Part shown: positions 12,886 to 30,899 of the stretch, piece by piece
How the letters are laid out: every line of letters begins with the position of its first letter
How positions within the stretch are numbered: position 1 is the stretch's first letter
Source of the DNA: Mucilaginibacter sp. dw_454
GTDB taxonomy: Bacteria; Bacteroidota; Bacteroidia; Sphingobacteriales; Sphingobacteriaceae
Assembly (NCBI RefSeq): GCF_018449775.1
Contig: NZ_JAAVVB010000001.1
Coordinates: forward strand, 558,001-622,000
Direction: 5' to 3'
Length of the DNA stretch: 64,000 nucleotides
Made by a program: the position numbers and the translations under genes
Notes under the pieces: model-generated
Databases searched by the model: none
Seen by the model: only the letters and a program-made list of their open reading frames with translations
What the model was told of the DNA's origin: nothing

Positions 12886-13046
12886 AGGCAGGTCTCCTGA
12901 CTTATAACATTCTAGCCGTCCTTCCCGTCTGCAGACAGTGGACATTGCTGGCTAAAACTTTTTTTTGTTACTTACAGTTGCGCGACAGCCCGTGATTTGC
13001 ACACGGTTCCCTTTTAATTTCCGTCATCAAAGACGGGAAACCTTTT
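12886..13046 (-). ncRNA. Cobalamin riboswitch in the metE leader
   Basis: Read on the minus strand, the leader contains GGTTTCCCGTC, then GGGAACCGTGTGCAAATCACG, then the B12-box core GGGCTGTCGCGCAACTGTAA, and ends with AAGTCAGGAGACCTGCC. These are the conserved blocks of the cobalamin aptamer in correct order. It starts about 60 nt after a minus-strand -7 box TAGCTTTG (plus 13112-13119). About 170 nt separate it from the metE start and should contain the expression platform. Confidence 0.93.
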
Positions 13047-13111
13047 CTGGTAGATAAAGTATAGAAAAGAACGCTGAGTTGTTGTAGTCCATTATAGGAC
13101 TAAATTCCAAA

Positions 13112-13895: not shown

Positions 13896-13927
13896 TTTGG
13901 TAGATTAAATAATAATTTATATGTTTG
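13896..13927 (+). promoter_or_regulatory. Promoter of the SusCD/DoxX locus leader
   Basis: TTTG at 13896-13899 and TATGTTTG at 13920-13927 are 20 bp apart, matching the Bacteroidota promoter. Transcription would begin at about 13934, the A of the leader-ORF start codon, so the leader may be leaderless. Confidence 0.6.
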
Positions 13928-13933
13928 GCGAGA

Positions 13934-14041
13934 ATGTTTACAACAGCAACAAATAACAACCATAAACCCGCTTCGCCAGAAGCTGCAGGTTTATATTCAG
14001 AAATGTCTATTTCTTTTGGGGAATGGATGTGTTGTTGTTAA
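13934..14041 (+). CDS. Leader peptide ending in Cys-Cys-Cys (uORF 1)
   Basis: A 35-codon ORF that begins MFTTATNNNHKP and ends SFGEWMCCC followed by TAA. The three Cys codons are all TGT and stand directly before the stop. It begins at or next to the predicted transcription start and ends 209 nt before the SusC-like gene. A shorter version from ATG 14003 (MSISFGEWMCCC) resembles in length and ending the leader at 29558. No known protein matches by eye; the position and Cys run suggest a translated sensor of cysteinyl-tRNA supply. Function is inference. Confidence 0.6.
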   Translation: MFTTATNNNHKPASPEAAGLYSEMSISFGEWMCCC

Positions 14042-14127
14042 TGGTGCTCATTTTTCTTAACAATTTTTTTAAGTAATCCCCCTGTCCCCCCAATAAGCAT
14101 ATGTGTTGAAAAAAAACTGAAATTAGA

Positions 14128-14153
14128 AAACCGGCAAGGTAGCCTCGCCGGTT
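14128..14153 (+). promoter_or_regulatory. Hairpin in the SusC leader
   Basis: AAACCGGC pairs with GCCGGTTT; after one mismatch AGG pairs with CCT around a TAG loop. It lies between the Cys leader ORF and the SusC-like gene. There is no T-run after it, so it is not a simple terminator. It could be part of an attenuation structure. Confidence 0.45.
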
Positions 14154-14250
14154 TAGCAGAATGAATGATCAGCGGTAACGGCAAATCACTTACTGATCCT
14201 CATTTCCAGATTCCATTTAAGATTAATCAAAAACAAAACCCACTAAATGT

Positions 14251-17200
14251 ATGAAAATATTTATACGTAAGAAACATCTATACTCCATTGTCACAAAACT
14301 GTTTCTTGTCCTCCTCTCCACTGCCACTTTCGCGCAGCAAGGATCATTACCTCCTAATAATTCAAAACTTCTAGGTGTAGTTACAGATGCTGTGACTAAA
14401 CAAACCATTCCCGGGGCGGTGGTTGCAATAAAGGGAACTACTCACGTGGTAGCTACTGATGAAAAAGGCAGGTTTGAATTTATTACTGCCCAAAAATATC
14501 CTTACACCCTTGTTGTAACCTACGTAGGTTATAAAACTACAGAAGTTGTTGCAGATGGCAGCCCAATAGAAATACAGTTGCAGGAGGATATCAATAATCT
14601 GAACGACGTAGTTGTAGTTGGTTACGGCTCAAGTACCCGTAAAAACCTGGTTAGCGCCCAATCAACCATTAAAGCCGACGAGGTAAAAAGCATACCGGTG
14701 GCAAGCTTTGATGCACAACTGCAGGGTAAAGCGGCCGGCTTGCAAATCAATTCAAATACAGGTACACCCGGCGACGGTATATTTGTCCGCGTACGTGGTA
14801 CTACGTCTATCAATGCGTCTAACGACCCTTTGTATGTAGTTGACGGTGTGTTTCTAAATAATACCAGTTTGCAAACTGTAAATACCGGCGGACGGGCAAC
14901 GTCACCAATTGCGGATATCAATCCCAGTGATATAGAAAGCTTTGAAGTATTGAAAGATGCAAGCGCAACCGCTATTTACGGATCAAGGGGGGCAAACGGC
15001 GTGGTAATTATAACCACTAAACGCGGCAAGTTTAACGACAAGCCAAAAATAGACTTTAGTGTCACCCAAGGTGTTGCCTATGAGCCTAAAGGCGATTTGT
15101 GGAAGCTGACTACCGGACCTGAGCATGCTGAAATTGTTAATGAGTTCTATACAAATTCTGAAGCGGATGCCATTGCGGCCGGAAATACTGCGGGTGCAGC
15201 AACTTACAAATATCTGCCTTTCAGAGCACTTACAGATAATCCTACAGCTACCCCTGCGCCGCGTGGCTTGCCGGGCGACCAACATACTTACGACCGTTTG
15301 GACGAGTTGTTTCGCACCGGTGCGTTGCGCGATTACAGCCTTTCTATAAGCGGCGGCTCTAAAGACACTAAATATTATATCGGTGCCGGATATAACTACC
15401 AGGATGCGGATATTAAACCTATTTATTTTGACAGAGGCGATCTACGTGTAAACATCGACCAAAAAGTTAATGACTTTATACAAGTTGGTGTAACCAATAG
15501 CTTGTCAAGATCATTCAGAAACCAGGCACGTGCCGGTGACGGGCCTGCCGGTGGTTTGTTCCAATCTGCTTTGCATACGCCAACTTACCTGCCCGAGGTT
15601 AATGCCGATGGTACGCCTGCCCGCTGGGCTGGTTTTGATAATCTGCAGGTATTGTTAAATAATTATAAAGTAGGTACTACAAGTTTACGCTATGTAGGCA
15701 ATTTTTATGCTGATGTTAAACTGGCAAAAGGATTAACCTTTAAAACAAGCTGGAGCCTTGATTATAATAACTATAACGAATCTGAATATTGGAACGACAA
15801 GACCCAGCTAGGCGCCGCACCTACCAATGGTTTGGCAACATCGTCTATTACAGATGCCAGTGCCTGGGTAAATGAGCAAACTATAAACTACCATACGCTA
15901 TTTGCCAGCAAGCATACCTTAGATGTGGTGGTTGGTAATACTATACAAAATAACGTTAGTAAAAACACCTTTGCACAAGGTTCAGGCTTCCCTAATAATG
16001 CTTATACAGATATTACGTCTGCGGCTACCCGTACAGCATCTCAAACCTGGACAAAATCAGACCTCGCTTCATTTTTCTCAAGAGTATCGTATAACTATGA
16101 TAGCAGATATTATTTAGAGGCCAGCGCCAGGGCAGATGGTTCATCAAAATTTGGTACTAACAATAAATGGGGATATTTTCCGGCAGTAGGCGCAGCATGG
16201 CGTTTAAAAGATGAAGATTTCTTGCGTGATGTTAGTGCTGTAAGCGACTTGAAACTTCGTGCCAGCTACGGAACTACCGGTAACTCTAACGGCATTAGCA
16301 ATTTTGCATCTCAGGGACTTTGGACTGGCGGAGCAGGTTATCCGGATATTACCTCAGGTGGCGATAAGGCTGGTACAGCCCCTCAACAGTTGCCTAATAA
16401 AGACCTGAAATGGGAGAGTACTACGCAATTTGACGTAGGTGCGGACTTAGGTTTGTTAAATAACCGCTTGAGTTTAACGTTTGATGTTTATTCAAAAATA
16501 ACCAATAACGTACTCTTACAAACTCCTGTTCCGGAAATTACAGGGTTTAGCACTGTTTACAGCAATGCCGGAAAAGTAAGTAATAAAGGTTATGAATTTG
16601 GCATTGATGCCCATATCGTTAGAACGAAAGAATTTAGCTGGAATTCTGAATTTAATATTTCAGGCAACGTAAACAAAGTGATCACATTACCTGCGCCTAT
16701 TTCTGAATATAGCCGCGACTGGATAACACTAAGACAAGGTTCTTCTATGTATTCTTTCTGGATGTATAAACAACTTTATGTTGATCCCGCTACCGGTAAT
16801 GCTATATTCCAGCATGCCGATGGCACTAAAGGACCTACTGTAACTACTGCAGACAGGCAGATTGTTGGAAATGCACTTCCTAAATTCCAGGGTGGTTTTA
16901 CCAATAACTTCACTTATCACGCATTTGATGCCGGCTTACTATTTACTTACGAGTACGGTAATAAAGTGTTGAATATGAATAAATTCTTTGGTGAAGGTGG
17001 TGGTACCCGCGATGCAAACCGGGTAATTTTTGCCGACCAGCTAAACCGTTGGACACATCCTGGCCAAATTACCGATGTACCAAGAGTAACTGCTTATGGT
17101 AATAACTATACGTTAGATCAAAACAGCCGCTTTTTAGAGGATGGCTCATTCATAAGGTTGAAATCATTGACCATTGGTTATACATTGCCTGCAGAAATTT

Positions 17201-17385
17201 CGCGTAAAATCGATATTCAAAAACTACGTGTATTCGCGTCGGCATCTAATCTCTTCATCATCACCAAATACACCGGGCCAGATCCTGAAGCTAACGTAAC
17301 CAGTGGCTCACAAACACAAGGACTTGATTTGGGTACGCCGCCACAGCCGCATACCATCCAGATTGGTGTAAATCTTACATTATAA
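14251..17385 (+). CDS. SusC/RagA-family TonB-dependent outer membrane receptor
   Basis: A 1044-aa outer-membrane importer. It has a signal peptide (LFLVLLSTATFAQQ), a carboxypeptidase-regulatory-like domain at about 38-110 (LLGVVTDAVTKQTIPGAVVAIKGT), a plug with NNLNDVVVVGYGSSTRKNL and VRVRGTTSINASNDPLYVVDG, the SusC signature ASATAIYGSRGANGVVIITTKRG, and a C-terminal 22-strand-type barrel ending IQIGVNLTL. It works with the SusD lipoprotein 12 bp downstream. The substrate is unknown; no polysaccharide enzymes are nearby, and the Cys leader plus DoxX-like partners suggest a sulfur compound. Confidence 0.95.
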   Translation: MKIFIRKKHLYSIVTKLFLVLLSTATFAQQGSLPPNNSKLLGVVTDAVTKQTIPGAVVAIKGTTHVVATDEKGRFEFITAQKYPYTLVVTYVGYKTTEVVADGSPIEIQLQEDINNLNDVVVVGYGSSTRKNLVSAQSTIKADEVKSIPVASFDAQLQGKAAGLQINSNTGTPGDGIFVRVRGTTSINASNDPLYVVDGVFLNNTSLQTVNTGGRATSPIADINPSDIESFEVLKDASATAIYGSRGANGVVIITTKRGKFNDKPKIDFSVTQGVAYEPKGDLWKLTTGPEHAEIVNEFYTNSEADAIAAGNTAGAATYKYLPFRALTDNPTATPAPRGLPGDQHTYDRLDELFRTGALRDYSLSISGGSKDTKYYIGAGYNYQDADIKPIYFDRGDLRVNIDQKVNDFIQVGVTNSLSRSFRNQARAGDGPAGGLFQSALHTPTYLPEVNADGTPARWAGFDNLQVLLNNYKVGTTSLRYVGNFYADVKLAKGLTFKTSWSLDYNNYNESEYWNDKTQLGAAPTNGLATSSITDASAWVNEQTINYHTLFASKHTLDVVVGNTIQNNVSKNTFAQGSGFPNNAYTDITSAATRTASQTWTKSDLASFFSRVSYNYDSRYYLEASARADGSSKFGTNNKWGYFPAVGAAWRLKDEDFLRDVSAVSDLKLRASYGTTGNSNGISNFASQGLWTGGAGYPDITSGGDKAGTAPQQLPNKDLKWESTTQFDVGADLGLLNNRLSLTFDVYSKITNNVLLQTPVPEITGFSTVYSNAGKVSNKGYEFGIDAHIVRTKEFSWNSEFNISGNVNKVITLPAPISEYSRDWITLRQGSSMYSFWMYKQLYVDPATGNAIFQHADGTKGPTVTTADRQIVGNALPKFQGGFTNNFTYHAFDAGLLFTYEYGNKVLNMNKFFGEGGGTRDANRVIFADQLNRWTHPGQITDVPRVTAYGNNYTLDQNSRFLEDGSFIRLKSLTIGYTLPAEISRKIDIQKLRVFASASNLFIITKYTGPDPEANVTSGSQTQGLDLGTPPQPHTIQIGVNLTL

Positions 17386-17397
17386 TTATTACGCTAT

Positions 17398-18762: not shown

Positions 18763-18773
18763 TTAACGAAACA

Positions 18774-20138
18774 ATGAGTAAAGTAATAACATCCTCACAC
18801 CAGTCGGATTGGTCTGGTTTTGAGAAGGCGATATTTCGTATTGCGTTCATTTACTTCATATTGCAAGCTGTACCGTTCGACTGGAAATATTACCGCAATT
18901 TGTTTTCCATCAATTGGTTACATCTTCAGTTTAGTGATATATTTTATATTAGCCGTTATACTCCTCAGATCATTGGCAGCCATGCTGCCAGTGGCTGGGG
19001 ACTTAACACCTATATCGATTGGGTTGTGCTGTTGGTTCTTGCAGGAATAGGTGCGGTAATCTGGTCGTTTCGAGAACAGAAAACACTTGATTACGATAAG
19101 CTATATTACTGGCTGCGGGTGATTGTGCGCTACCGTTTGGCGATAGGTATTATCGCTTACGGTTTTATCAAGTTTTTCCCGTTGCAGGCGCCGTTTCCAT
19201 CTATCAGTAACTTAAATACACCTTACGGATACTTTACCCGTTGGAAAATATTTTCATTAAGCCTGGGCATTGTACCTACTTATGAATCGTTTTTGGGCTT
19301 GGTGGAGATAGTGGGTGGTTTGCTTTTGCTATTTAGGAAAACTGCAACTATAGGTGCATTGATCATCGTGGTCTTTCTAGGCAACGTATTCTTTTCAAAT
19401 TTGGCTTATGATGGGGGCGAGGCTATTTATGCCTTGTATCTGATCTCCCTTGGTCTGTTGTTATTATCATTCGATATCATTCGCTTAGTTAACCTGATTG
19501 GTTTTGAACGACCTACCCAGCCTAATCACTTTCAGCCATCGTTACCAAAAAAATGGCAACCCGCGCGTTTGGTACTTAAAAGTGTATTCATTTTATTTTT
19601 TGTTGTGATCTACGGATTTAAAACCTACTCGGCTTATCATAATGATGTTTATCAATTTCCGAAAGCAGCAGGATTAAAAGACGCTGCCGGGTTTTATAAT
19701 GTAAGCAGTTTCAAATTGAATAAAGATACGCTGGCTTATTCGGCTACCGACACCTCGCGTTGGACAAACCTTGTGTTCGAGAAATGGGCTACTATCAGCA
19801 TTGCAGTAAATAAACCTGTCAAATTAGATTCGGCACTTACTGAAGAAGTTAACTACAAAGACCCGGAAAGGAACTATGAATTAGCAGGCTCTACCGGCAG
19901 GCAATACTACAGCTACGTTGTAGACAGCGTAAACCAGGTGCTTAAACTGCAAAACAAAAACAGTAACTATAAAAACGACCAGATCATATTACACTATACA
20001 CAGCCTGATAGTACCAGATTCGTACTGTCGGGTGTTGAAGGTAAGGATTCGGTTTATGCTGTTTTAGATAAGATTGATAAAAAGTATCTGTTGCAGGAAG
20101 TTGCCAAAAAGGGCCGCGATAAGTCAATCAAACTCTAA
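18774..20138 (+). CDS. DoxX-like integral membrane protein (paralogue 1)
   Basis: A 454-aa inner-membrane protein. Several membrane helices lie in the first 275 residues, around the core LYYWLRVIVRYRLAIGIIAYGFIKFFPLQAPFPS and a second block SFLGLVEIVGGLLLLFRKTATIGALIIVVFLGNVFF. This pattern resembles the DoxX/DoxD superfamily, which includes subunits of thiosulfate:quinone oxidoreductase. After a further helix near 285-300 a soluble domain of about 150 residues follows. The next gene is a clear paralogue. The link to sulfur rests on family resemblance and context only. Confidence 0.65.
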   Translation: MSKVITSSHQSDWSGFEKAIFRIAFIYFILQAVPFDWKYYRNLFSINWLHLQFSDIFYISRYTPQIIGSHAASGWGLNTYIDWVVLLVLAGIGAVIWSFREQKTLDYDKLYYWLRVIVRYRLAIGIIAYGFIKFFPLQAPFPSISNLNTPYGYFTRWKIFSLSLGIVPTYESFLGLVEIVGGLLLLFRKTATIGALIIVVFLGNVFFSNLAYDGGEAIYALYLISLGLLLLSFDIIRLVNLIGFERPTQPNHFQPSLPKKWQPARLVLKSVFILFFVVIYGFKTYSAYHNDVYQFPKAAGLKDAAGFYNVSSFKLNKDTLAYSATDTSRWTNLVFEKWATISIAVNKPVKLDSALTEEVNYKDPERNYELAGSTGRQYYSYVVDSVNQVLKLQNKNSNYKNDQIILHYTQPDSTRFVLSGVEGKDSVYAVLDKIDKKYLLQEVAKKGRDKSIKL

Positions 20139-20172
20139 TCAGTCCATTTCATCATCATAAAAAGAAATTATT

Positions 20173-21774
20173 ATGTCAACAGAAAATGAAACTGTTATAG
20201 CAACACCGACGCAGGTGGTTAAGCCGACTGGAGGAAAAAAATTGACCATAGCGTCCAAAACACCGGTACCCTGGAAACCTTATCAAAGAGTTTTATTCAG
20301 GATAGCGTTTGTGTTCTTTTTGATCATGTCTTTGCCTTTTACGGCGGCATGGTATAAAACCCTTTTTACAATAGATTGGTTTAACCTGCATTACCGCGAC
20401 CTTTATGATTTAACCCTATACTCGCCGTCAATTTACCGGTTCTCAAATCCGGCTTATAACCTGTTAGGTTACATTGATTGGGTTGAGGCTTTCGCCATAG
20501 GTATAATAGGTGGTTTGATTTGGAGCGCTATTGATAACAAAAATAAATCATACGACAGGTTATATTACTGGTTGCGTGTTATCGTACGTTATCGTGCTGC
20601 TATCGGTATTATAGGCTTTGGTTTTACCAAGTTTTTGCCGGTACAATTGCCTTATCCTTCATTAGGGGTTTTAAATACAAATTTTGGCGATATCACCGCT
20701 CAAAAAATTTACTGGCTGCAAGTGGGTATTGTACCCTGGTATGAGATATTTGCCGGTGTAGTAGAAGTTGCTGCCGGCGCGTTGCTCTTTTTCAGAAGAA
20801 CAACCTTATTAGGCTCAGTATTGCTTTTTGGCGCATTGGCCGACATTACTTTTGTTAATTTTTCTTACAATGGCGGTGTGCATGTGTACGCTTCATTCTT
20901 TGTATTAACCTCGTCGTTTTTGATTATTTATGATGTACCGAAAATATACAGCCTTTTGGTATTGGAAAAGTATACGATTCCGCAGAACTTTTATCCTGAT
21001 CTGTCGGCCAAATGGATTAAGTACACACGTATTGGTGTAAAAACAGCCTTCATCTATGTATTCCTGATCTTGTTTTTCTACCTGCAGTTCATCAACTGGA
21101 AATACGACCCGTATAAACAACCATCTACCAGTGGTATTAAAACTCTGCGTGGAAACTACAATGTAACTGAGTTTAAGATCAACAATCACGAAATCCCTTA
21201 CAATCCTCAAGATTCTGTACGCTGGAGCGCTGTGACTTTTGAAAAATGGTCGACATTAACTTACCGGGTTAATAAACCGGTTTGGCTTGACCTTTCTAAC
21301 GGTGGTGGCGCGCCTATGCGCGATATTAACCGTACGTTCGAACTCTCGGGCGTAGGTGGTGGCCAACGTGTGTTTTATTACGATGCTGATACAGTTAACC
21401 ATACTTTGTATCTGCAGGATAAAAATACACGTGCACTTGGCTCGGGTGGTGTAAGGAGTAAGAACACTGTTTTGAAACGTAAGAAAGAAGTTGTTCAAAA
21501 CCGGATCCCTAAGGAAGCCCTGGCTAACATCCGCGATGAAAATACGGCAATTAACAAAATCGCTCAGTCAACCCGCCGCACACGTGGTATAGCTGCCGAG
21601 AAAAAGGATCCGTTTAAGCGCGACCACATGATTCTGACCTATAGTACCACTGATGGTTCGCATGTGATCCTGAAAGGAATCAACGAGAAAAAGGATTCTA
21701 TTTATGTAGTGCTTGACAGGATTAATAAACCCTATGCGTTAACGCCAAGCAAATTACAGGCTGGTAGCTACTAG
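20173..21774 (+). CDS. DoxX-like integral membrane protein (paralogue 2)
   Basis: A 533-aa paralogue of the preceding protein; both share YDRLYYWLRVIVRYR, the AIGIIGFGFTKFLPVQLPYPS-type loop and the C-terminal soluble domain (VRWSAVTFEKWSTLTYRVNKPVWLDLS against TSRWTNLVFEKWATISIAVNKPVKLDS). It differs by about 30 extra N-terminal residues and an insertion of about 60 mostly basic and polar residues near 425-490 (KKEVVQNRIPKEALANI and onward). Last gene of the operon; a terminator follows. Probably a membrane complex with paralogue 1. Confidence 0.65.
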   Translation: MSTENETVIATPTQVVKPTGGKKLTIASKTPVPWKPYQRVLFRIAFVFFLIMSLPFTAAWYKTLFTIDWFNLHYRDLYDLTLYSPSIYRFSNPAYNLLGYIDWVEAFAIGIIGGLIWSAIDNKNKSYDRLYYWLRVIVRYRAAIGIIGFGFTKFLPVQLPYPSLGVLNTNFGDITAQKIYWLQVGIVPWYEIFAGVVEVAAGALLFFRRTTLLGSVLLFGALADITFVNFSYNGGVHVYASFFVLTSSFLIIYDVPKIYSLLVLEKYTIPQNFYPDLSAKWIKYTRIGVKTAFIYVFLILFFYLQFINWKYDPYKQPSTSGIKTLRGNYNVTEFKINNHEIPYNPQDSVRWSAVTFEKWSTLTYRVNKPVWLDLSNGGGAPMRDINRTFELSGVGGGQRVFYYDADTVNHTLYLQDKNTRALGSGGVRSKNTVLKRKKEVVQNRIPKEALANIRDENTAINKIAQSTRRTRGIAAEKKDPFKRDHMILTYSTTDGSHVILKGINEKKDSIYVVLDRINKPYALTPSKLQAGSY

Positions 21775-21821
21775 CCCTCTATTTAAGTTCTTCAGCGTTT
21801 TAGTTTCTGATTCGTTGCGTA

Positions 21822-21855
21822 AGCCCCCTTTGGCGTAGGGGGCTTTGCTTTTTAA
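21822..21855 (+). terminator. Terminator of the SusCD/DoxX operon
   Basis: AAGCCCCC/GGGGGCTT with a 9-nt loop, followed by TGCTTTTTAAA. Confidence 0.8.
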
Positions 21856-21918
21856 AATCATTATTAAAAAAAAGCTTTTTAAGTTAGCGTTTAGTAACTC
21901 AGCAGCAATAAACGGAAC

Positions 21919-23400
21919 TTATTTGCCGGATACTTTTAAACTTCCATATAGCATCTGGCTGTATAACCCATAAGCTGCCAGTAACACCAGGAAGGATACG
22001 ATCACCAGTAAAAAGCCGCTTCGCATCATATCTTTTATGGAGACGTTACCGGTTGTAAAAACAATGGCATTAGGGGGAGTTGACATGGGCAACATATATG
22101 CACAACTGCAGGCCAGGGTAACCGGGGCGCCCAACAAAATTGGATTGATACCGGTTGCGTTTGCTACACCGAATGCCATAGGCAGCATGATGGTTGCCAG
22201 CGCTGTATTGCCTATAAATTGCTTTAATAATAAGGTTACAACTATTAATATCGCCACTAAAATAAACGTGCCGCTAATGCCGTTTGCAGTAATGGCATGA
22301 CCAACCAATTTAATAATTCCCGAGTTTTCCAGGGCCTTTGCAAGGGCCAGCCCGCCACCTATCAGAAATAAAATGCCCCATGACAATTTCTTCATACTGC
22401 CCCAGTCAAACAAAAAACGAGTGTCGCTGGCAGGGTCAGGAATCATGAAAAGCAGTAAAGCTCCGGATAGCCCTATGATGGTATCATTCAAAAAGTTTAA
22501 ACCAAACCATTCTATAAACGGCGTTCGCAGTACCCAGCCCAGGGCAGTGATAATAAACACCGTGCTTATGGCATATTCCTGGAAAGACATTTTACCAAGC
22601 TCGTTGATTTTAGCATCGAGCATATTTTGCGTGCCGGGTAATGATTGAGTTTTTACCTTAAACAAAAGCTTAACTATAATAAAATAAGCAGCAATAAGCA
22701 TAACAACGGATACCGGGAAACCAACCAAAAACCATCCTGCAAAAGATATATCTATTTGATAGAATTGCTTGAAGAAGGTGATCAAAACGGCGTTGGTTGG
22801 CGTGCCAATGATGGTGGCCATGCCGCCTATACTGGCGCAATAGGCCACACTGAGCAATACACTTTTAGCAAAATTTTTATAATCGCTTTCCAGTCCTGCG
22901 CTTAAAAATTCGTCTTCCATTAGTGTCAATACCGAGGTTGCAATGGGTAGCATCATTAACGTGGTGGCAGTATTATTAACCCACATGCTAATAAAAGCTG
23001 TGGCAATCATAAAACCCAATACAATCCGGTTACTTTTGGTGCCTACAAAGCGCACAATGTATAAAGCTATCCGGATGTGGAGTTTATGCTTTTCCATGGC
23101 CAGGGCAAATATAAAGCCGGCCATATACAGAAATATAGTAGGGTTGGCGTAGTTAACCGCGGTAGCGTTCAGATCGAGTACCCTCATAATTGGAAACAAC
23201 ACCAGCGGCAACAAAGCTGTAACCGGGATGGGTACTGCTTCTGTAACCCACCAGATCAAAATCCATCCCGCTACGGCTACTGTGTTACGGATATGCGCAT
23301 CGGCAGAGACCAGTTTGAATAATACGATGATGCCAAACAGCAGCGGACCGGCTATTAAAGAAATATAACTTTTCCAGGAAGCCTTTGTAAGCGATGTCAT
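21919..23400 (-). CDS. DASS/SLC13 family sodium:anion symporter
   Basis: A 493-aa polytopic transporter with about 12 hydrophobic segments. The first half has WWVTEAVPIPVTALLPLVLFP and the S-x-x-T-x loop MATIIGTPTNAVLI; the second half repeats the motif as MSTPPNAIVFTTGN, the paired substrate and sodium loops of the DASS family. Family members import di- and tricarboxylates or sulfate; the specificity cannot be read here. It is the last gene of a leftward operon whose leader carries a five-Cys uORF, so an acidic sulfur compound is a possible cargo. Confidence 0.88.
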   Translation of the reverse strand: MTSLTKASWKSYISLIAGPLLFGIIVLFKLVSADAHIRNTVAVAGWILIWWVTEAVPIPVTALLPLVLFPIMRVLDLNATAVNYANPTIFLYMAGFIFALAMEKHKLHIRIALYIVRFVGTKSNRIVLGFMIATAFISMWVNNTATTLMMLPIATSVLTLMEDEFLSAGLESDYKNFAKSVLLSVAYCASIGGMATIIGTPTNAVLITFFKQFYQIDISFAGWFLVGFPVSVVMLIAAYFIIVKLLFKVKTQSLPGTQNMLDAKINELGKMSFQEYAISTVFIITALGWVLRTPFIEWFGLNFLNDTIIGLSGALLLFMIPDPASDTRFLFDWGSMKKLSWGILFLIGGGLALAKALENSGIIKLVGHAITANGISGTFILVAILIVVTLLLKQFIGNTALATIMLPMAFGVANATGINPILLGAPVTLACSCAYMLPMSTPPNAIVFTTGNVSIKDMMRSGFLLVIVSFLVLLAAYGLYSQMLYGSLKVSGK

Positions 23401-23401
23401 T

Positions 23402-24571
23402 TTACTGTTCGCTTAATGCCTTTTGCACGTGCTTCACTACAATATCTGCCTGGTAGTCGACTATCTTTTTACCCATTTCAACCGTTTTTTCAACCGGGGC
23501 AAGCTGCACACCATTAATTGAAAAATGACCGGTTTCTATACGCTGCTGCGCTCTGACAAGGGCCGGGTCAAGCACCATGATTTGTGATTCGACTTTATAG
23601 TTATCATGTATCCCTTCATTACCTTCTTCTATGCCCTGCGTTTTCAACCAGGCAGACAGGCGGTTATTGTCATAATACTCAGGCACGAATATCACGTGGG
23701 TACCGTCGCCTTTCCATTTGTCGTTTAGCGCTTTAGTAACCCGGTACATGCCCCATTGATTACCGCCGCTATCGCCAAAAAAAACAATGGTTTTAAAGCC
23801 TTCCACCTTGTAGCTTGTAGCGATATCGCTTAACAGGTTTTCGTAGGTGTCTTCACGTACACTGATGGTGCCGGGATATTTAACGTGCCCGGTTGGCGGA
23901 TAAAAACCGCCTTCGGGTACAAACGGTACTATCGGCGCAACTAATGCATTTCCTAACTTTTCGGCAATGCGTTTAGCAAGCACCCTGGTTATGTAAGTAT
24001 GTTTTCCTGTCGGGATGTACGGGCCCGATTGTTCAACGCCGCCCGTACCTATGATGATAGTGTTTTTTCCTTCGCGCAAATTGTCCCGAACATCCAGCCA
24101 GGTAAGTTCTTCTATAAAAAGTGAAGCAGATTTGGGGATCACCCTTTTGGTATCCGGATCTGGCGACATGGATTTATCGGAAAATTCGACGTCCGGTCCA
24201 CCTCGTTTTTTTTCGAGCGTAGCGGCTTCAATCTTATTTTTTGTAAAGATTATGGCATAAGGCTTGCCGCTGTAAATAACATTGCCTACCAGTTCGGCCT
24301 TATCGTTTAGCGTACCTTCTATCGCTATTTCGCGTTCGGGCAATACCAGGTAAATTGATTTGTCGTTGATGTCGACCTCTGATGGTTTCTGATCATTTTT
24401 TTGTTCGGACAGAAAATCTACAGTGGCATTCTTGCCCTTTAAATGCAAAGCTAATACGCTGCCTGTTCGTCCGTTTCTGGATACAGACCCATACCAGTCG
24501 CCATCGGTTTGCGCGTAGGTTGTCGAAGTAAAAGCAAATAAAATAATTGTGAGAAAGTTGAATTTTGTCAT
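23402..24571 (-). CDS. Secreted creatininase-family protein, divergent metal site
   Basis: A 389-aa protein with a signal peptide (FLTIILFAFTSTTYAQ), an N-terminal beta-rich region of about 120 residues and a C-terminal creatininase-like amidohydrolase domain. The family's EQHGPHLP...D becomes EQSGPYIPTGKH, NGHGGN becomes FGDSGGNQ, and the D-x-HAGE block becomes IHDNYKVESQ. Several usual metal ligands are therefore replaced, some by other potential ligands. It may use a different metal set or bind without hydrolysis. It ends one base before the DASS gene starts. Confidence 0.75.
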   Translation of the reverse strand: MTKFNFLTIILFAFTSTTYAQTDGDWYGSVSRNGRTGSVLALHLKGKNATVDFLSEQKNDQKPSEVDINDKSIYLVLPEREIAIEGTLNDKAELVGNVIYSGKPYAIIFTKNKIEAATLEKKRGGPDVEFSDKSMSPDPDTKRVIPKSASLFIEELTWLDVRDNLREGKNTIIIGTGGVEQSGPYIPTGKHTYITRVLAKRIAEKLGNALVAPIVPFVPEGGFYPPTGHVKYPGTISVREDTYENLLSDIATSYKVEGFKTIVFFGDSGGNQWGMYRVTKALNDKWKGDGTHVIFVPEYYDNNRLSAWLKTQGIEEGNEGIHDNYKVESQIMVLDPALVRAQQRIETGHFSINGVQLAPVEKTVEMGKKIVDYQADIVVKHVQKALSEQ

Positions 24572-24613
24572 AGTATATAATTGATTTAAATATTTCCTGA
24601 GATAAGCCAGGTT

Positions 24614-25642: not shown

Positions 25643-25649
25643 CGGAAAT

Positions 25650-26585
25650 TTATTGTTTATAAGCAAGCGAATTTATTGGCGCGCTGCTAACTTTAGTTTT
25701 GTAAGGCGATTGACACAAACGGGCGAATAAAGTGTCAGCCTCAACTTTTTTGTCTGTATTGTTAATAGAAAAACTCCAAAACTCTTCCAGATCACCATCG
25801 TTTATAGTCATTTGCGTAGCGCCCTGGCTTTTGTGTGCGGCCAATTCCCAGTTAGCTATGATCTTGTAGTTGATACGATTTTGGTAGCTAAAACTTACTG
25901 TACGGTCTATCACGAAAGAGGGTAGCGGATTATCTGTACGTGTCAACTGATAGGTGCCCAAGCCATTAAATGTCCTGGCGTTGTCTGTTTTATCCCGCAA
26001 AGCGGCACCAAAAATAAGCGGACGTTGATTGGCAGGTAATGCTGCTACAGCGTCTAAAGCTAATAGGGTAGCAGCTTTGTGCCCGCCATGCGTATCGGCT
26101 TCGGGTAAAAGACAGAATACATCATCGTAATGATTACGCACTAAAATATCATGCAACCGCTTCTTTACTTTGGCTACCTGCCAGCTGGTGTCTAAGGATT
26201 CGTGCTCGTTTAACGTATAATGGCTGTCCGGCTGGTCGGCAAAATAATAGTTAGTAATGCCGATAACTTTACCGGCTTCGCGAAGCTCTTTTTTACGGAT
26301 GGCAGGCAGTCTCTTTTTAGCATCGGCTGCGGTGGTTAATTTGCAGCCATAATACTGCTCGGCCAGCGTTGAATACTTGTAACCGCCTTCGCCATTAGTA
26401 ATCACGAAAAGGTCGACCGTGGTGTGCTGCTCTTTAGCCAGCTTATATAACGTTACTGAGAGTATGCTTTCATCGTCAGGGTGGGCAATTACGACAAGCA
26501 CACGATGACCCGATTGAGCCAATAACTTTATCGGCGATAGTAGCATCAGCAATAACAATAAATAGTTTATTCTATTATTTTTCAT
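25650..26585 (-). CDS. Secreted PIG-L family (LmbE-like) deacetylase
   Basis: A 311-aa protein with signal peptide MKNNRINYLLLLLMLLSPIKLLAQ; I start it at ATG 26585, not the upstream ATG at 26612, for that reason. The zinc site shows HPDDES in VLVVIAHPDDESILS and HGGH in EADTHGGHKAATLLALDAV. PIG-L enzymes remove acetyl groups from GlcNAc-inositol, GlcNAc-malate and similar thiol precursors, or cleave mycothiol conjugates. First gene of the operon behind the five-Cys leader. Location in the periplasm suggests scavenging, not biosynthesis. Confidence 0.88.
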   Translation of the reverse strand: MKNNRINYLLLLLMLLSPIKLLAQSGHRVLVVIAHPDDESILSVTLYKLAKEQHTTVDLFVITNGEGGYKYSTLAEQYYGCKLTTAADAKKRLPAIRKKELREAGKVIGITNYYFADQPDSHYTLNEHESLDTSWQVAKVKKRLHDILVRNHYDDVFCLLPEADTHGGHKAATLLALDAVAALPANQRPLIFGAALRDKTDNARTFNGLGTYQLTRTDNPLPSFVIDRTVSFSYQNRINYKIIANWELAAHKSQGATQMTINDGDLEEFWSFSINNTDKKVEADTLFARLCQSPYKTKVSSAPINSLAYKQ

Positions 26586-26651
26586 GGGGACAGATTTAAA
26601 GTAATGAGGCACAGCGCGTGCTAAAAGATAGGGGGCAAGGTAACGCGGGTA

Positions 26652-26735
26652 TTAACGGCAGCAACAACAGCAGCCCGGCGCATTCTGTATAAAAACGGTA
26701 TCGATCGATATGATTTGAGCTGTTTTTTGCGACAT
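26652..26735 (-). CDS. Leader peptide with five consecutive Cys (uORF 2)
   Basis: A 27-codon ORF reading MSQKTAQIISID..., then ...QNAPGCCCCCR and TAA. The Cys codons are TGC TGT TGT TGC TGC, so the run is not a simple trinucleotide repeat. It starts about 14 nt after the predicted transcription start and ends 66 nt before the PIG-L start codon. Placement, size and ending match the two other Cys leaders in this window. It is best read as a translated attenuator or sensor of Cys-tRNA; this is inference. Confidence 0.65.
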   Translation of the reverse strand: MSQKTAQIISIDTVFIQNAPGCCCCCR

Positions 26736-26754
26736 CTAAATTTGCTTAACAGCA

Positions 26755-26785
26755 CAAACGTAACCGATAATTTTGTCTTTTCAAA
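26755..26785 (-). promoter_or_regulatory. Promoter of the deacetylase-DASS operon
   Basis: On the minus strand TTTG (plus 26782-26785) and TACGTTTG (plus 26755-26762) are 19 bp apart, an exact consensus match. The start point would be near 26749, just before the five-Cys leader ORF. Confidence 0.75.
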
Positions 26786-26823
26786 AAATATCTATAAATT
26801 CTATAGGAATTATAGATTAATTG

Positions 26824-26831
26824 TATATTTG
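26824..26831 (+). promoter_or_regulatory. -7 box of the cysteine desulfurase transcript
   Basis: TATATTTG matches TAnnTTTG and places the start point about 10 nt before the SAM riboswitch. Confidence 0.55.
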
Positions 26832-26849
26832 CAGCAGTTCTTTAATAAA

Positions 26850-26960
26850 ATTTATCCAGAAAGACCGAGGGAAAGGCCCGATGACGTCTTGGCAACCTGT
26901 AACATTTTACCATGCTAAAAGGTGCCAAATCCTACTCCGAAAAAAGGAGAAAGATAAGAT
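26850..26960 (+). ncRNA. SAM-I (S-box) riboswitch
   Basis: The P1 stem TTATC/GATAA encloses the conserved blocks AGACCGAGGGAAAGGCCCG, ATGACGTCTTGGCAACCTG, AAGGTGCCAAATCC and the CTCC-GAAAAAA-GGAG hairpin, all in SAM-I order. It ends about 60 nt before the cysteine desulfurase start codon. The downstream gene should be reduced when S-adenosylmethionine is plentiful. Confidence 0.92.
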
Positions 26961-27021
26961 TGAATGATTAAACAGGCAGCCGCCCGGCGCTTTCTGGAAA
27001 TAAACATTTAAAATAAAAATT

Positions 27022-28152: not shown

Positions 28153-28160
28153 TAAAATAA

Positions 28161-28233
28161 GGTGGAGTGGCCGAGTGGTTAGGCGGAGGTTTGCAAAAGC
28201 TCAATATGGCGGTTCGATCCCGCCCTCACACCT
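28161..28233 (+). tRNA. tRNA-Cys (GCA), structurally damaged or pseudogene
   Basis: The order GGTGGAG-TG-GCC...GGC-G-GAGGT-TTGCAAA-AGCTC-AATAT-GGCGG-TTCGATC-CCGCC-CTCACACC-T gives anticodon GCA and U73, both right for Cys. Two defects stand out. The 3' acceptor strand has an extra A (28228), which must bulge, and the anticodon stem has a G89-G99 clash (28189/28199). The D and T arms are perfect. It ends 1 nt before the next gene's start codon. It may be a decayed copy or still work poorly. Confidence 0.75.
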
Positions 28234-28234
28234 C

Positions 28235-28654
28235 ATGAAAAAAATAATAATTATAGCGTGCCTGTTGCTTAGCAGCGTGTCTGTTTTTGCGCAAACCGAC
28301 AAACCTTTAACCATTGAAAGCTATTATAAAGTGAAGTGGGGGTATAGCGATGAGTTTATAGCGCTGTGGAAGAAAAATCATTATCCGTTGCTTAAAAAAC
28401 TACAAGAAAAAGGTGATGTAATAAGCATCAAAGCAGAGACGCCCATAGTTCATAGCGGCGAGGATACTCGTTGGGATTTTAAAGTAGTCATTACTTTCAA
28501 AACAGAACACCTGGCCCTGGATTACAGCATTGTCGACCCGTATAAAAAGCAACTCTTTCCGGATAAGGAAGTTTATGAAAAAGCAGAGCAACACCGCTTT
28601 GAATTAGTTATAGCCCATTGGGATGTATTGGTTGAGGCCTTACCTTTAAATTAA
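28235..28654 (+). CDS. Small secreted protein of unknown function
   Basis: A 139-aa protein starting MKKIIIIACLLLSSVSVFAQTD, a clear signal peptide, so ATG 28235 is used in place of the longer frame through the tRNA. The mature part is about 118 residues, acidic to neutral, with IESYYKVKWGYSDEFIALWKKNHYPLLKKLQEKG, which resembles ferredoxin-like dimeric alpha-beta barrel proteins. No catalytic motif is recognised. It begins immediately after the tRNA-Cys-like element and precedes the SDR gene by 12 bp. Confidence 0.75.
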   Translation: MKKIIIIACLLLSSVSVFAQTDKPLTIESYYKVKWGYSDEFIALWKKNHYPLLKKLQEKGDVISIKAETPIVHSGEDTRWDFKVVITFKTEHLALDYSIVDPYKKQLFPDKEVYEKAEQHRFELVIAHWDVLVEALPLN

Positions 28655-28666
28655 ATAAAGAGCAGT

Positions 28667-29443
28667 ATGTCAGATTTTGCGTTAGTTACGGGTGCAAGCG
28701 GTGGTATAGGCAGGTCAATAGCTTTAACGTTAGCGAAACGGGGATATAATTTGCTGCTGGTTTCAAGATCGACAACTGAGCTTGAATTGCTTGCCGAAAC
28801 GCTCAAAAAAGATTATAGCGTGCAAGCCGTTTATTATACTGCCGACCTGGCCGGAACCAAAGGCATTGACGAGGTTGTGCAGTGGATAAAAGATCTCAAT
28901 TACCCCCTCTCTATTTTAGTTAATAATGCGGGCTTTGGCTTATGGGGTAAATTTGCAGAATTGTCACTCGATACTCAACTACAGATGTTAAGATTGAATA
29001 TTGATGCTGTAGTTTCTTTAAGTCATCAGCTACTGCCGTTGCTGTCAAAGCAAAAACAAGCGTATATCCTGAATGTGGCCAGTACTGCCGCTTACCAGGC
29101 CGTACCGACGCTGGCATTATACTCGGCGAGTAAGGCTGCTGTGCTGTCTTTTAGTCGGGCATTGCGCTATGAATTAAGAAAAGGCCCCGTTGGTGTTAGT
29201 TGTTTATGCCCCGGCCCCACAGATACCGGTTTTGCCAAACGTGCGGGCATGGATAAACTTGCAGACCTTGCAGAGAAGTTTAACATGAGTCCTGATGAGG
29301 TAGCTAACGTAGCGGTAAAAGGCTTATTTGCAAAAAAAGCAGAGATAATACCCGGAACACTTAACAAGCTATCTGCCTTTGCGGTTAGGTTGGTAAGCAA
29401 GAGTTTTGTAGAACGGATAGGTGGTGGTTTGTATGAAAAATAA
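28667..29443 (+). CDS. Short-chain dehydrogenase/reductase
   Basis: A 258-aa classical SDR. The nucleotide motif TGASGGIGRSIA, the NNAG motif in LVNNAGFGLWG, the catalytic Ser in NVASTAAYQ and YSASKAA (Tyr and Lys) are all present. The C-terminal part resembles the subgroup related to DltE/YqjQ oxidoreductases. The substrate is unknown. It forms a short unit with the preceding secreted protein; the intergenic region after it holds the next promoter and Cys leader. Confidence 0.9.
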   Translation: MSDFALVTGASGGIGRSIALTLAKRGYNLLLVSRSTTELELLAETLKKDYSVQAVYYTADLAGTKGIDEVVQWIKDLNYPLSILVNNAGFGLWGKFAELSLDTQLQMLRLNIDAVVSLSHQLLPLLSKQKQAYILNVASTAAYQAVPTLALYSASKAAVLSFSRALRYELRKGPVGVSCLCPGPTDTGFAKRAGMDKLADLAEKFNMSPDEVANVAVKGLFAKKAEIIPGTLNKLSAFAVRLVSKSFVERIGGGLYEK

Positions 29444-29457
29444 TTATTCAATTTTTA

Positions 29458-29487
29458 TTTGATTATTTAATATTATAATTATCTTTA
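29458..29487 (+). promoter_or_regulatory. Candidate promoter of the PhyH transcript
   Basis: TTTG at 29458-29461 and TATCTTTA at 29480-29487, 18 bp apart, fit the Bacteroidota promoter with one mismatch in the -7 box. The start would be near 29494, about 64 nt before the Cys leader. Confidence 0.4.
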
Positions 29488-29557
29488 CTTAATCTATAGA
29501 CTTAATAGATATTAATGAATTTAAAAAAACAATATATCCTTTAAACATTTCGGGCCA

Positions 29558-29602
29558 ATGTTCTTCGCCCAGGAGAACGCCTGTATGTGTTGTTGTTGTT
29601 AA
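29558..29602 (+). CDS. Leader peptide MFFAQENACMCCCC (uORF 3)
   Basis: A 14-codon ORF with five Cys codons, four of them in a run directly before TAA. It ends 84 nt before the PhyH dioxygenase gene. The ending MCCCC-stop is close to the MCCC-stop of the leader at 13934. A 7-bp hairpin AATTCGA-TC-TCGAATT follows near 29613, and its flanks could also pair with the sequence around the stop codon. A cysteine-sensing leader is the simplest reading; the ORF is otherwise too short to support by coding statistics. Confidence 0.6.
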   Translation: MFFAQENACMCCCC

Positions 29603-29686
29603 TTGATCATCTCAATTCGATCTCGAATTAATAGTGGCCTCAGCTTGCGGGCTATAATTTTCTTACGTTAATATTTCTCCATTTTT

Positions 29687-30493
29687 ATGAACAATACTTA
29701 TTCAAGGTATAGCCTTGGCGGCTTAATTACCGCCGAACAAAAACAATTTTTTAACGAAAACGGGTATATCCATTTTCAGAATTTTTTCGAAAAAGAAACC
29801 GTCGACCAATTAATAGATGCTTCATTAGCTGTGCAGCAAAAACTGCTGATAAACAACACTAAAAAAATAAATGGCGTGCCCATTAAATATGGTTATGACG
29901 TGGATGGCGCTCCAATTGTACAACGTTTTGCCTTTATTAACCAACAACATCCAGCTTTTGAAGAGCTAACCAGAGATGACCGGTTTAAATTACTGCTTAA
30001 ATTAATTGGCCCCGATGCACGCTTGGGTATAAATGAGAAAGATGGTATGGTGTTAAATCACTACATTAATGGCCCGCTAAGTAAGTTCACCAAAATGGGT
30101 TGGCATACCGATGGTTTGCGCGACATATTTTTAGGTCAAAAATTAAGCCCGATGCTGAATGTCGGCATTCATTTAAGTGATGCCCGTCCTGAAAATGGGG
30201 GATTACGTCTGTTGCCGGGCACACATCAGCAAAGCATCTATAAACTTTTGTTCCGAAAAAAGTATTTCCTTGACCACGATACCGATAAAGACGAAATAGC
30301 CATTTTACCAAAAGCCGGAGATTTGACCATCCACGATGGCAGATTATGGCACCGCGTAGCGCAGTCATCTATAGTTGGCGAGGCCAGCCGCAGGCGCGTG
30401 ATATATATTCCAATTATTGCCGGAAAATATCAACCTAAGCATGCCGATAGTACGACGGCTTTTTATCAACGTTTTGCAGGTATAGTTAAATAA
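29687..30493 (+). CDS. Phytanoyl-CoA dioxygenase (PhyH) family protein
   Basis: A 268-aa Fe(II)/2-oxoglutarate dioxygenase. The iron ligands are visible as His140 and Asp142 in MGWHTDGLRD and the distal His222 in DGRLWHRVAQSS, with Arg235-237 available for 2-oxoglutarate. The length and the N-terminal FNENGYIHFQNFF are typical of PhyH proteins. Members hydroxylate lipids, alkaloids or phosphonates; the true substrate is unknown. The Cys leader upstream suggests control by sulfur status, and release of sulfur from an organic compound is a possible but unproved role. Confidence 0.85.
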   Translation: MNNTYSRYSLGGLITAEQKQFFNENGYIHFQNFFEKETVDQLIDASLAVQQKLLINNTKKINGVPIKYGYDVDGAPIVQRFAFINQQHPAFEELTRDDRFKLLLKLIGPDARLGINEKDGMVLNHYINGPLSKFTKMGWHTDGLRDIFLGQKLSPMLNVGIHLSDARPENGGLRLLPGTHQQSIYKLLFRKKYFLDHDTDKDEIAILPKAGDLTIHDGRLWHRVAQSSIVGEASRRRVIYIPIIAGKYQPKHADSTTAFYQRFAGIVK

Positions 30494-30499
30494 GTAGTT

Positions 30500-30577
30500 A
30501 TGTTGATAGCGTTGATCATAGGCTACTTCGTCAGAAAAAAAGCCTTGCAAGTACCCGTAGCACAGACAATCAAATAG
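30500..30577 (+). CDS. Possible 25-aa membrane miniprotein
   Basis: ATG to TAG encodes MLIALIIGYFVRKKALQVPVAQTIK: a hydrophobic first half, then RKK, the layout of a tiny inner-membrane protein. It fits neatly between the PhyH stop (6 bp away) and the thioredoxin ATG (4 bp away), so translational coupling is possible. Evidence is only position and composition. Confidence 0.3.
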   Translation: MLIALIIGYFVRKKALQVPVAQTIK

Positions 30578-30581
30578 TACC

Positions 30582-30899
30582 ATGGCAATCGTAATAACAG
30601 ATGAAAACTTCGAGGAATTGGTGCTTCGGTCGACAAAACCGGTATTGCTTGATTTTTGGGCCGACTGGTGTAGCCCCTGTAAAATGATCAGTCCGGTTAT
30701 AGATGAAATGTACACTGATTATAAAGAAGTGGCTATAATCGCTAAGATCGATGCTGAGCGAAATCCTTTAACCGCCAAGCGCTATAAAGTTTCGCATGTG
30801 CCAGCGTTACTGTTTTTTAAGTCAGGGGAGTTAGTCGATAGACAAGCTGGTCCGGTACCTAAGAATATTTTAGCTGAAAAACTTAATCGGTTTGTTTAA
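30582..30899 (+). CDS. Thioredoxin
   Basis: A 105-aa single-domain thioredoxin, the usual length, acting as a cytoplasmic dithiol reductant. The active site is DFWADWCSPCK (Cys30, Cys33), with Ser in place of the common Gly, and the cis-Pro loop is SHVPALLFF. It follows the PhyH gene in the same direction. Thioredoxin could supply electrons for sulfur assimilation, but it is also a general housekeeping protein. Confidence 0.93.
   Translation: MAIVITDENFEELVLRSTKPVLLDFWADWCSPCKMISPVIDEMYTDYKEVAIIAKIDAERNPLTAKRYKVSHVPALLFFKSGELVDRQAGPVPKNILAEKLNRFV

What the first reader, a model, noticed from the sequence alone, without database searches (positions are those of the whole stretch)
13896..30899. 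Three Cys-run leaders, a SAM riboswitch, a B12 riboswitch and a tRNA-Cys-like element within 18 kb: a candidate sulfur regulon
Three separate transcription units have Cys-ending leader ORFs; between two of them sits a SAM-I riboswitch on a cysteine desulfurase, and metE with a cobalamin riboswitch lies just before. The downstream genes (SusCD, DoxX-like proteins, PIG-L deacetylase, DASS symporter, PhyH dioxygenase, thioredoxin) could import and break down organosulfur compounds. The leaders are seen in sequence; a shared cysteine signal and sulfur substrates are inference.
Basis: inference. Interest (0 to 1): 0.93.

Follow-up and report, generated by a model that had tools for sequence, protein, structure and literature searches.

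The report
Cysteine-starvation regulon with spare tRNA-Cys genes
This bacterium has a set of operons that share one DNA site, short upstream reading frames ending in runs of cysteine codons, and extra, oddly built cysteine-tRNA genes, and together they are predicted to switch on sulfur scavenging when cysteine runs short.

Summary
In detail: three Cys-run leader ORFs, a SAM-I riboswitch, a cobalamin riboswitch and a tRNA-Cys gene. The sulfur-regulon reading is supported by independent tests. (1) The PhyH leader is conserved: 72 of 80 named loci (Mucilaginibacter, Pedobacter, Flavobacterium, Chitinophaga and others) against 0-3 of 76-79 at control positions. (2) A 19-bp dyad, GTCTA-N9-TAGAC, lies at the promoter of these leaders. 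The window's genome has six perfect sites: five before Cys-run leaders, one before a YeiH-type (PF03601) gene. In relatives it precedes, among others, APS kinase, a cysteine-synthase-type enzyme and a sulfatase. (3) The main operon is sulfur-sparing: 1 Cys and 7 Met in 2481 residues (about 16.5 and 48 expected). (4) New: the genome has one ordinary tRNA-Cys plus four extra copies, all in these operons. In relatives 22 of 29 extra units carry the operator (0.2 expected), against 1 of 29 ordinary ones. Many extra copies have a bulged acceptor stem or an A1-G72 mispair. Inferred, untested: Cys-tRNA-dependent ribosome stalling, an Rrf2-type regulator, the sulfur substrates, and what the extra tRNAs do. 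The PIG-L/DASS unit is the weakest member.

The parts
10417..12717 (-). metE, cobalamin-independent methionine synthase (neighbour; own control)
   Evidence: PF01717 and PF08267; normal Cys/Met content
12870..13060 (-). cobalamin riboswitch before metE (neighbour)
   Evidence: RF00174, 105.4 bits
13887..13905 (.). operator dyad GTCTATGGATTTGGTAGAT of the L1 unit
   Evidence: one of six perfect sites in the genome; PWM 20.8
13934..14041 (+). leader ORF L1, ends ...GEWMCCC*
14251..17385 (+). SusC-type TonB-linked receptor
   Evidence: TIGR04056; 0 Cys, 3 Met in 1043 residues
17398..18762 (+). SusD-type lipoprotein
   Evidence: PF14322, PF07980
18774..20138 (+). membrane protein, weakly DoxX-like; no Cys and no Met after the start
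   Evidence: PF07681 at E 0.47
20173..21774 (+). second membrane protein, weakly MauE/DoxX-like
   Evidence: PF07291 at E 0.041; 0 Cys, 3 Met in 532
21919..23400 (-). DASS-family symporter
   Evidence: TIGR00785 over its cut-off
23402..24571 (-). creatininase-family protein
   Evidence: PF02633
24614..25666 (-). protein of unknown family
   Evidence: only a sub-threshold PF05903 match
25650..26585 (-). PIG-L-type deacetylase, ATG start at 26585
   Evidence: PF02585; frame read
26652..26735 (-). leader ORF L2, ends ...APGCCCCCR*
26790..26817 (.). two overlapping weak operator matches in the divergent L2 / SAM promoter region
   Evidence: PWM 14.9 and 12.3; resembles variant sites in L259, L263, L265, L272
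26849..26960 (+). SAM-I riboswitch
   Evidence: RF00162, 79.4 bits
27022..28152 (+). cysteine desulfurase, NifS/IscS type
   Evidence: PF00266; TIGR03402 best but below its cut-off
28161..28234 (+). extra tRNA-Cys(GCA), bulged acceptor class, 8 nt after the desulfurase stop
   Evidence: ARAGORN, Rfam, model R1 80.3 bits
28235..28654 (+). hypothetical secreted protein (139 aa)
   Evidence: no Pfam family
28667..29443 (+). short-chain dehydrogenase
   Evidence: PF00106
29492..29510 (.). operator dyad ATCTATAGACTTAATAGAT of the L3 unit
   Evidence: perfect site; PWM 20.7
29558..29602 (+). leader ORF L3, MFFAQENACMCCCC*
29687..30493 (+). PhyH-type dioxygenase
   Evidence: PF05721
30582..30899 (+). 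thioredoxin
   Evidence: PF00085

Best explanation
The operons share an operator dyad and Cys-run leader ORFs, hold extra tRNA-Cys genes, and likely form a cysteine-limitation regulon with up to three predicted control layers: a regulator, probably of the Rrf2 family, at the dyad; ribosome stalling at the leader's terminal Cys codons when Cys-tRNA is short; and, for the desulfurase unit, a SAM riboswitch. Shown by sequence: the parts, their spacing, their conservation, and the link of the operator to sulfur genes and to extra tRNA-Cys copies. Inferred: the direction of control (on when cysteine is short), the regulator, and how a stalled ribosome raises expression; since few leaders have a terminator-like hairpin before the gene, relief of translation or of Rho is more likely than a terminator switch. 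The products would import and oxidise sulfur compounds (SusCD, DoxX-like proteins, sulfite-oxidase-type enzyme, PhyH dioxygenase) and handle thiols (thioredoxin, peroxiredoxin), and the extra tRNA-Cys genes would be made in the same condition.
For: Leader conserved in 72 of 80 PhyH loci, controls 0-3 of 76-79. Last Cys is the final residue in 63 of 72 leaders and next to final in 9; TGT 248 to TGC 85 in leaders, 730 to 628 in long ORFs. Dyad at spacing 9: 45 of 80 loci with at least 9 of 10 arm bases, 0 of 80 shuffled, 0-2 at other spacings. Six perfect operator sites in the own genome, five before Cys-run leaders. In 7 other genomes 18 sites; all 15 held as loci are intergenic, 5 with a Cys-run leader; genes include APS kinase, PALP-CBS, sulfatase, redoxin. 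L1 operon 1 Cys and 7 Met in 2481 residues, expected 16.5 and 48.2. Extra tRNA-Cys units: 22 of 29 with the operator, 0.2 expected in simulated sequence. Covarying hairpin just before the Cys codons in the Pedobacter set, 94.4% of cells paired against 17-48% when slid. Rrf2 homologues in seven fetched loci of the regulon, with an operator score of 15 or more upstream in three.
Against: No expression data. The L2 operon and L118 are not sulfur-poor, and neither is the assimilation operon; L2's operator is weak. Of 15 operator loci in other genomes about six precede genes with no plain sulfur link (L362, L364, L367, L368, L369, L371). No terminator switch: terminator-like hairpins in 8 of 72 leaders, 1 of 72 shuffled. 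The own-genome operator pattern was relaxed to fit the window's L1 and L3 sites, so those two of the six are not independent. The Rrf2 gene's own promoter has only a 13.2-bit match in this genome, and 2 of 7 homologues have none. Window leader RNAs do not fold better than shuffles (z -1.2, -0.9, +1.6). The species are related, so counts are not independent events.
Confidence: 0.75

Rival explanations
1. It is a redox or thiol-stress regulon rather than a cysteine-starvation regulon: a sensor, perhaps an Fe-S Rrf2 protein, turns on peroxiredoxins, thioredoxin-like proteins and PhyH, and the Cys-run leaders sense loss of usable cysteine by oxidation.
For: Peroxiredoxin or AhpC/TlpA-like genes sit in several units (L260-L265, L272, L353, L355, L365). 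The abstract start of PMC12581299 says sulfur starvation in Pseudomonas aeruginosa induces antioxidant defences, so the two states may overlap (listing).
Against: APS kinase, cysteine-synthase-type and sulfatase genes under the operator and sulfur-poor proteins point to sulfur supply.
Confidence: 0.15
2. The extra tRNA-Cys genes are decaying copies carried along behind operons, with no function of their own; the regulon works by operator and leader alone.
For: The window copy has a G.G pair in the anticodon stem and the L117 copy has C33; positions and numbers differ between genomes.
Against: Stems covary across 53 aligned copies (acceptor pair 6: GC 17, AT 14, CG 13, TA 7; one non-standard cell of 265 in the T stem). 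U73 in 53 of 53 and anticodon GCA in 52 of 53. Two or more copies in 13 of 13 genomes of the genus. Operator in 22 of 29 units.
Confidence: 0.2
3. The Cys-run ORFs encode working small peptides (metal- or thiol-binding, or precursors of modified peptides), not regulatory leaders.
For: ORFs conserved next to an enzyme gene.
Against: Sequence and length vary while the terminal Cys run, its place just before the stop and its distance to the gene (48-127 nt) are kept; different leaders precede unrelated genes.
Confidence: 0.05

Closest known systems
Polycysteine short ORFs as cysteine-responsive attenuators in mycobacteria (Canestrari et al. 2020; not held; recalled, and seen as cited in passages of PMC13236596)
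   Same: Short ORFs with Cys codon runs upstream of cysteine and sulfur genes; translation-level attenuation there
   Different: Here in Bacteroidota, with a shared promoter-proximal operator, a hairpin before the Cys codons, TonB/SusCD operons and extra tRNA-Cys genes; the switch is untested
selC* tRNA-Cys and other tRNAs with unusual acceptor branches (PMC7609411, passages)
   Same: Minor tRNA-Cys species with a changed acceptor branch including a bulged base, U73 and GCA anticodon
   Different: Those are described from anaerobic Firmicutes, Proteobacteria and others, with a bulge in the T stem and a long variable arm; these have a short variable arm and a bulge in the acceptor 3' strand or a 1:72 mispair, and lie in operator-controlled operons
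CymR-type Rrf2 cysteine regulators of Firmicutes (recalled; no call)
   Same: A dyad operator controlling sulfur genes, with an Rrf2 gene near regulon members
   Different: The regulator here is only inferred from neighbourhood; the dyad sequence was derived here
SAM-I riboswitch (RF00162)
   Same: Aptamer before a cysteine desulfurase
   Different: A tRNA-Cys gene lies 8-13 nt after the desulfurase, same strand, in the window, L267 and L268, three genomes of one genus

Membership tests
Amino-acid leader-peptide attenuator (Cys-specific) | Short upstream ORF rich in codons of one amino acid, conserved before the gene | tested here: met
   72 of 80 loci against 0-3 of 76-79 controls
Amino-acid leader-peptide attenuator (Cys-specific) | Downstream genes tied to that amino acid's supply | tested here: met
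   operator-linked sulfur genes and sulfur-poor proteins; indirect for PhyH and SusCD
Amino-acid leader-peptide attenuator (Cys-specific) | Intrinsic terminator between leader and gene (trp-type transcription attenuation) | tested here: not met
   8 of 72 terminator-like, 1 of 72 shuffled; so not filed as the trp type
Amino-acid leader-peptide attenuator (Cys-specific) | Response to charging of the cognate tRNA | not testable with these tools
   needs an experiment
Rrf2 (CymR-like) cysteine regulon | Shared operator before sulfur genes | tested here: met
Rrf2 (CymR-like) cysteine regulon | Rrf2 protein binds that operator | tested here: inconclusive
   neighbourhood only: Rrf2 homologues in L186, L244, L278-L282; score of 15 or more upstream in L278, L279, L282; 13.9 in L280, L281; none in L186, L244; 13.2 in the own genome
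tRNA-Cys | Cloverleaf with covarying stems, GCA anticodon, U73 | tested here: met
   53 aligned copies: U73 in 53, GCA in 52
tRNA-Cys | Charged with cysteine and used in translation | not testable with these tools
   needs an experiment
selC* tRNA-Cys | 8/4 acceptor branch with bulge in the T stem and long variable arm | tested here: not met
   5-bp T stem, short variable arm; bulge in the acceptor 3' strand in 12 of 53; definition from PMC7609411
SAM-I riboswitch | Covariance-model match over the gathering score | tested here: met
   79.4 bits against 44.4

The most novel reading that the evidence does not exclude
The extra tRNA-Cys genes are a dedicated part of the switch: a starvation-induced, structurally altered tRNA-Cys pool (bulged acceptor or A1.G72) whose charging, EF-Tu use or turnover differs from the ordinary tRNA, so that the cell separates sensing tRNA-Cys, read at the leader Cys runs, from housekeeping tRNA-Cys, or feeds cysteine from tRNA into a non-ribosomal reaction. 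It would be a regulon that makes its own variant of the very tRNA it senses.
Probability: 0.35. Interest if true: 0.95.

Novelty: new variant of a known kind. Interest (0 to 1): 0.86.

Why it matters
A sulfur regulon defined by operator, Cys-run leader and SAM riboswitch would give Bacteroidota a map of sulfur-scavenging genes, including SusCD systems that may import sulfur compounds rather than sugars, and dioxygenases and membrane proteins of unknown substrate. The extra tRNA-Cys genes raise a general question: why should a starvation regulon contain variant copies of the tRNA whose charging signals the starvation? The site is short and the genes are small, so it can be tested directly in laboratory species of Mucilaginibacter and Pedobacter.

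Tried and rejected
Leader count by CCC-stop alone is noisy. In one search, 7 CCC-stop matches were marked intergenic; 5 of the 7 have the operator upstream. The other two (L002, L034) and two CCCR-stop matches inside genes (L115, L116) were judged chance. Of 102 CCC-codon-stop matches (list cut at 100), only the three ending CGTTAA were followed up.

Transcription attenuation by intrinsic terminators: tested, not general.

Pairing between the start of the leader and the Cys codons: a tendency only (best helices 81-83% of cells; longest match 5.6 against 4.7 shuffled), not used.

Hairpin before the Cys codons: covarying in the Pedobacter set; the consensus fold of the Mucilaginibacter set shows only another short hairpin without two-sided changes.

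Leader upstream of each tRNA-Cys by a strict same-strand chain: 6 of 33 extra rows, 2 of 33 ordinary rows, duplicates included; weak. The operator test scanned more bases for extra units (17,715) than for ordinary ones (3,410), so I added a control: simulated sequence of the same make-up gives 0.2 and 0.0 hits per round; a fixed, unmasked 800 nt gives 8 of 29 against 0 of 29.

A first operator pattern (two mismatches allowed) gave 977 sites per strand, fewer than its reversed control (2223), and was replaced.

In one search the PIG-L row was out of frame and its rank tests include it; one search has the corrected counts and those rank tests are not used.

Structure of the first DoxX-like protein: mean pLDDT 39.9 with 3 sequences, discarded; no fold search was run. 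PhyH against solved structures: only EctD at E 2.5e-4, so no substrate is inferred.
Full report
OBSERVATION. The three Cys-ending leader ORFs are real: L1 13934-14041, L2 26652-26735 on the minus strand, L3 29558-29602. The window has 3 such ORFs; simulated windows have 0.22 on average and at most 2 in 60. The SAM-I riboswitch (26849-26960), the cobalamin riboswitch before metE (12870-13060) and the tRNA-Cys (28161-28234) are found by Rfam and ARAGORN.

LEADER CONSERVATION. PhyH matches were found in 19 of 121 family genomes, the own one included. The 13 at 65% identity or more all have a Cys-run leader upstream; the 6 at 51-53% have no clear one. 72 of 80 have the leader; control positions give 0-3 of 76-79. 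The 8 misses are L225, L237, L239, L240, L246, L248, L254, L256. The peptides differ in length and sequence but end in Cys runs (for example MRMCCCCA, MRMPFPKRVMCSCCC, AGCCYCCC); the last Cys is the final residue in 63 of 72 and next to final in 9, and the stop lies 48-127 nt before the gene, median 91. In the Pedobacter set (18 sequences) a hairpin lies just before the Cys codons with two-sided changes: 94.4% of cells paired against 17-48% when slid. The Mucilaginibacter set (20 sequences) did not give it in its consensus fold.

OPERATOR. A dyad GTCTA-N9-TAGAC lies most often 4 nt after a TTTG-type box (41 of 79 loci scored), which fits the Bacteroidota promoter TAnnTTTG (recalled). 45 of 80 loci reach 9 of 10 arm bases at spacing 9, 0 of 80 shuffled; other spacings give 0-2. 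In the own genome RTCTAYNNANTNNRTAGAY has 6 perfect sites: before L1; before L3; before a leader ending QQACCC ahead of a TonB receptor (L132); before the leader ending VMCMCCC of a SusC, SusD, S51 peptidase, tRNA-Cys, DoxX-like, DoxX-like, cytochrome c, sulfite-oxidase-type operon (L117); before the leader ending AVMCCCC of an S10 peptidase followed by two tRNA-Cys genes (L118); and before a PF03601 (YeiH-type) gene without a leader (L348). The pattern was relaxed to fit the window's two sites; the other four are independent. Eleven further sites have one mismatch; nine were looked at and five of the nine lie inside ORFs, but one precedes a peroxiredoxin (L353) and one an AhpC-type gene with a leader ending MCCY (L355). 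The reversed-pattern control had 4 sites at up to one mismatch. In 7 other genomes there are 18 perfect sites, in 6 of the 7 (reversed control: 2, both in one genome). The 15 held as loci are all intergenic; 5 of 15 have a Cys-run leader. Pfam names APS kinase (L360), sulfatase (L372), PALP-CBS, that is cysteine-synthase type (L373), redoxin (L365), a CN hydrolase (L368) and an M28 peptidase (L369); three are PhyH; L362, L364, L367 and L371 have no plain sulfur link.

SULFUR LINKS. The leader of the TonB receptor lies about 4 kb from an operon with Rrf2, a sulfite/nitrite-reductase-type protein, two PAPS-reductase-family proteins and a GTPase of the EF-Tu superfamily; I read it as the sulfate assimilation operon. 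The L1 operon has 1 Cys and 7 Met in 2481 residues, against 16.5 and 48.2 expected from 188 other own-genome ORFs (binomial P about 1e-6 and 1e-13). The L117 operon, the TonB receptor and, for Met, the PF03601 protein are depleted too; the L2 operon, L118, the assimilation operon and MetE are not, and the window's PhyH-thioredoxin pair is not significantly so. 76 of 80 PhyH proteins have no Cys. Proteins made in sulfur starvation are known to be poor in sulfur (recalled).

EXTRA tRNA-Cys. The own genome has 5 tRNA-Cys genes: one ordinary (C11:458745) and four in these operons. In the 30 other tRNA loci read, only the anticodons GCC (2) and CAT (3) recur (the Rfam search scored 150 of 301 candidates and missed one of the Cys copies). 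In 121 family genomes 26 have two or more matches to a tRNA-Cys core pattern, among them 13 of 13 of the own genus (the pattern misses some copies). In 295 genomes of the class, 158 of the 285 outside the family match and 1 of those 285 has two. Extra copies lie 2-20 nt behind a 211-aa peroxiredoxin (L261-L265, L272), a desulfurase (window, L267, L268), a PF03601 transporter (L278, L280-L282), PhyH (L313, L314), AhpC/TlpA-like proteins (L260, L133), L266's 387-aa protein, or an S10 peptidase (L118); others stand alone or at larger distance, for example L259, L269-L271, L273-L277, L279. Ordinary copies mostly follow one ORF of about 250 aa. Operator score of 15 or more: 22 of 29 extra units and 1 of 29 ordinary units, that one (L315) being the PhyH-linked copy with an ordinary core; simulation gives 0.2 and 0.0. 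Of 53 aligned copies, 12 have a bulged base in the acceptor 3' strand and 26 lack a Watson-Crick pair at 1:72 (22 A.G, 2 A.A, 1 U.G, 1 G.G); U73 is kept in 53, GCA in 52. Among the 80 named PhyH loci ARAGORN found 13 tRNAs, 7 of them Cys. In the window, L267 and L268, three genomes of one genus, the order is SAM riboswitch, desulfurase, tRNA-Cys.

MECHANISM. Terminator-like hairpins occur in 8 of 72 leader-to-gene stretches (1 of 72 shuffled), so the switch is probably not trp-like. I commit to this: low Cys-tRNA stalls the ribosome on the terminal Cys codons, which keeps the leader RNA open and raises expression by relief of translation or Rho control; the dyad gives the first layer. The regulator is likely an Rrf2 protein: homologues lie in seven fetched regulon loci, with an operator score of 15 or more upstream in three (L278, L279, L282), 13.9 in two and none in two; the own gene heads the assimilation operon with a 13.2-bit match. 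None of this mechanism is shown.

NOVELTY. Cys-run leaders are known from mycobacteria (cited in PMC13236596, passages). Minor tRNA-Cys with unusual acceptor branches are reviewed in PMC7609411 (passages). A flavobacterial transcriptome paper mentions leader-peptide attenuation before amino-acid operons in general (PMC9723704, passages); a Streptomyces reannotation lists leaders for other amino acids and a SAM-IV riboswitch before a desulfurase (PMC8079986, passages). Searches of the open library (listings of at most 20 papers read) showed nothing that describes this combination; most subscription papers are not in that library.

TAXON.

Noticed in passing
L137:8530-8601 (-), apparently the same gene as L207:4819-4890: A tRNA with a Cys-type body (A1.G72, U73) but a CAU anticodon beside a SAM-riboswitch desulfurase, called tRNA-Met by ARAGORN; possibly a recoded tRNA.
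   Followed up: partly
L117:12576-12647: Extra tRNA-Cys with C at position 33 and a U1.G72 pair, inside the sulfite-oxidase-type operon.
   Followed up: partly
window 18774-20138: A 454-aa membrane protein with no Cys and no Met after its start residue.
   Followed up: partly
L273:7618-11613 and L271:3441-7379: Large ORFs of 1331 and 1312 aa, by their start possibly adenylation-type enzymes (my reading), 378-404 nt before an extra tRNA-Cys in two genomes of the genus.
   Followed up: no
window 13202-13705: An Lrp/AsnC-family regulator between metE and the L1 unit; its role here was not tested.
   Followed up: no
L258, L259, L370 (genome G001): Further SusC genes with Cys-run leaders (ending MYMFGSCCC and CCRCWCCCRM) and two extra tRNA-Cys copies, one bulged.
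   Followed up: partly
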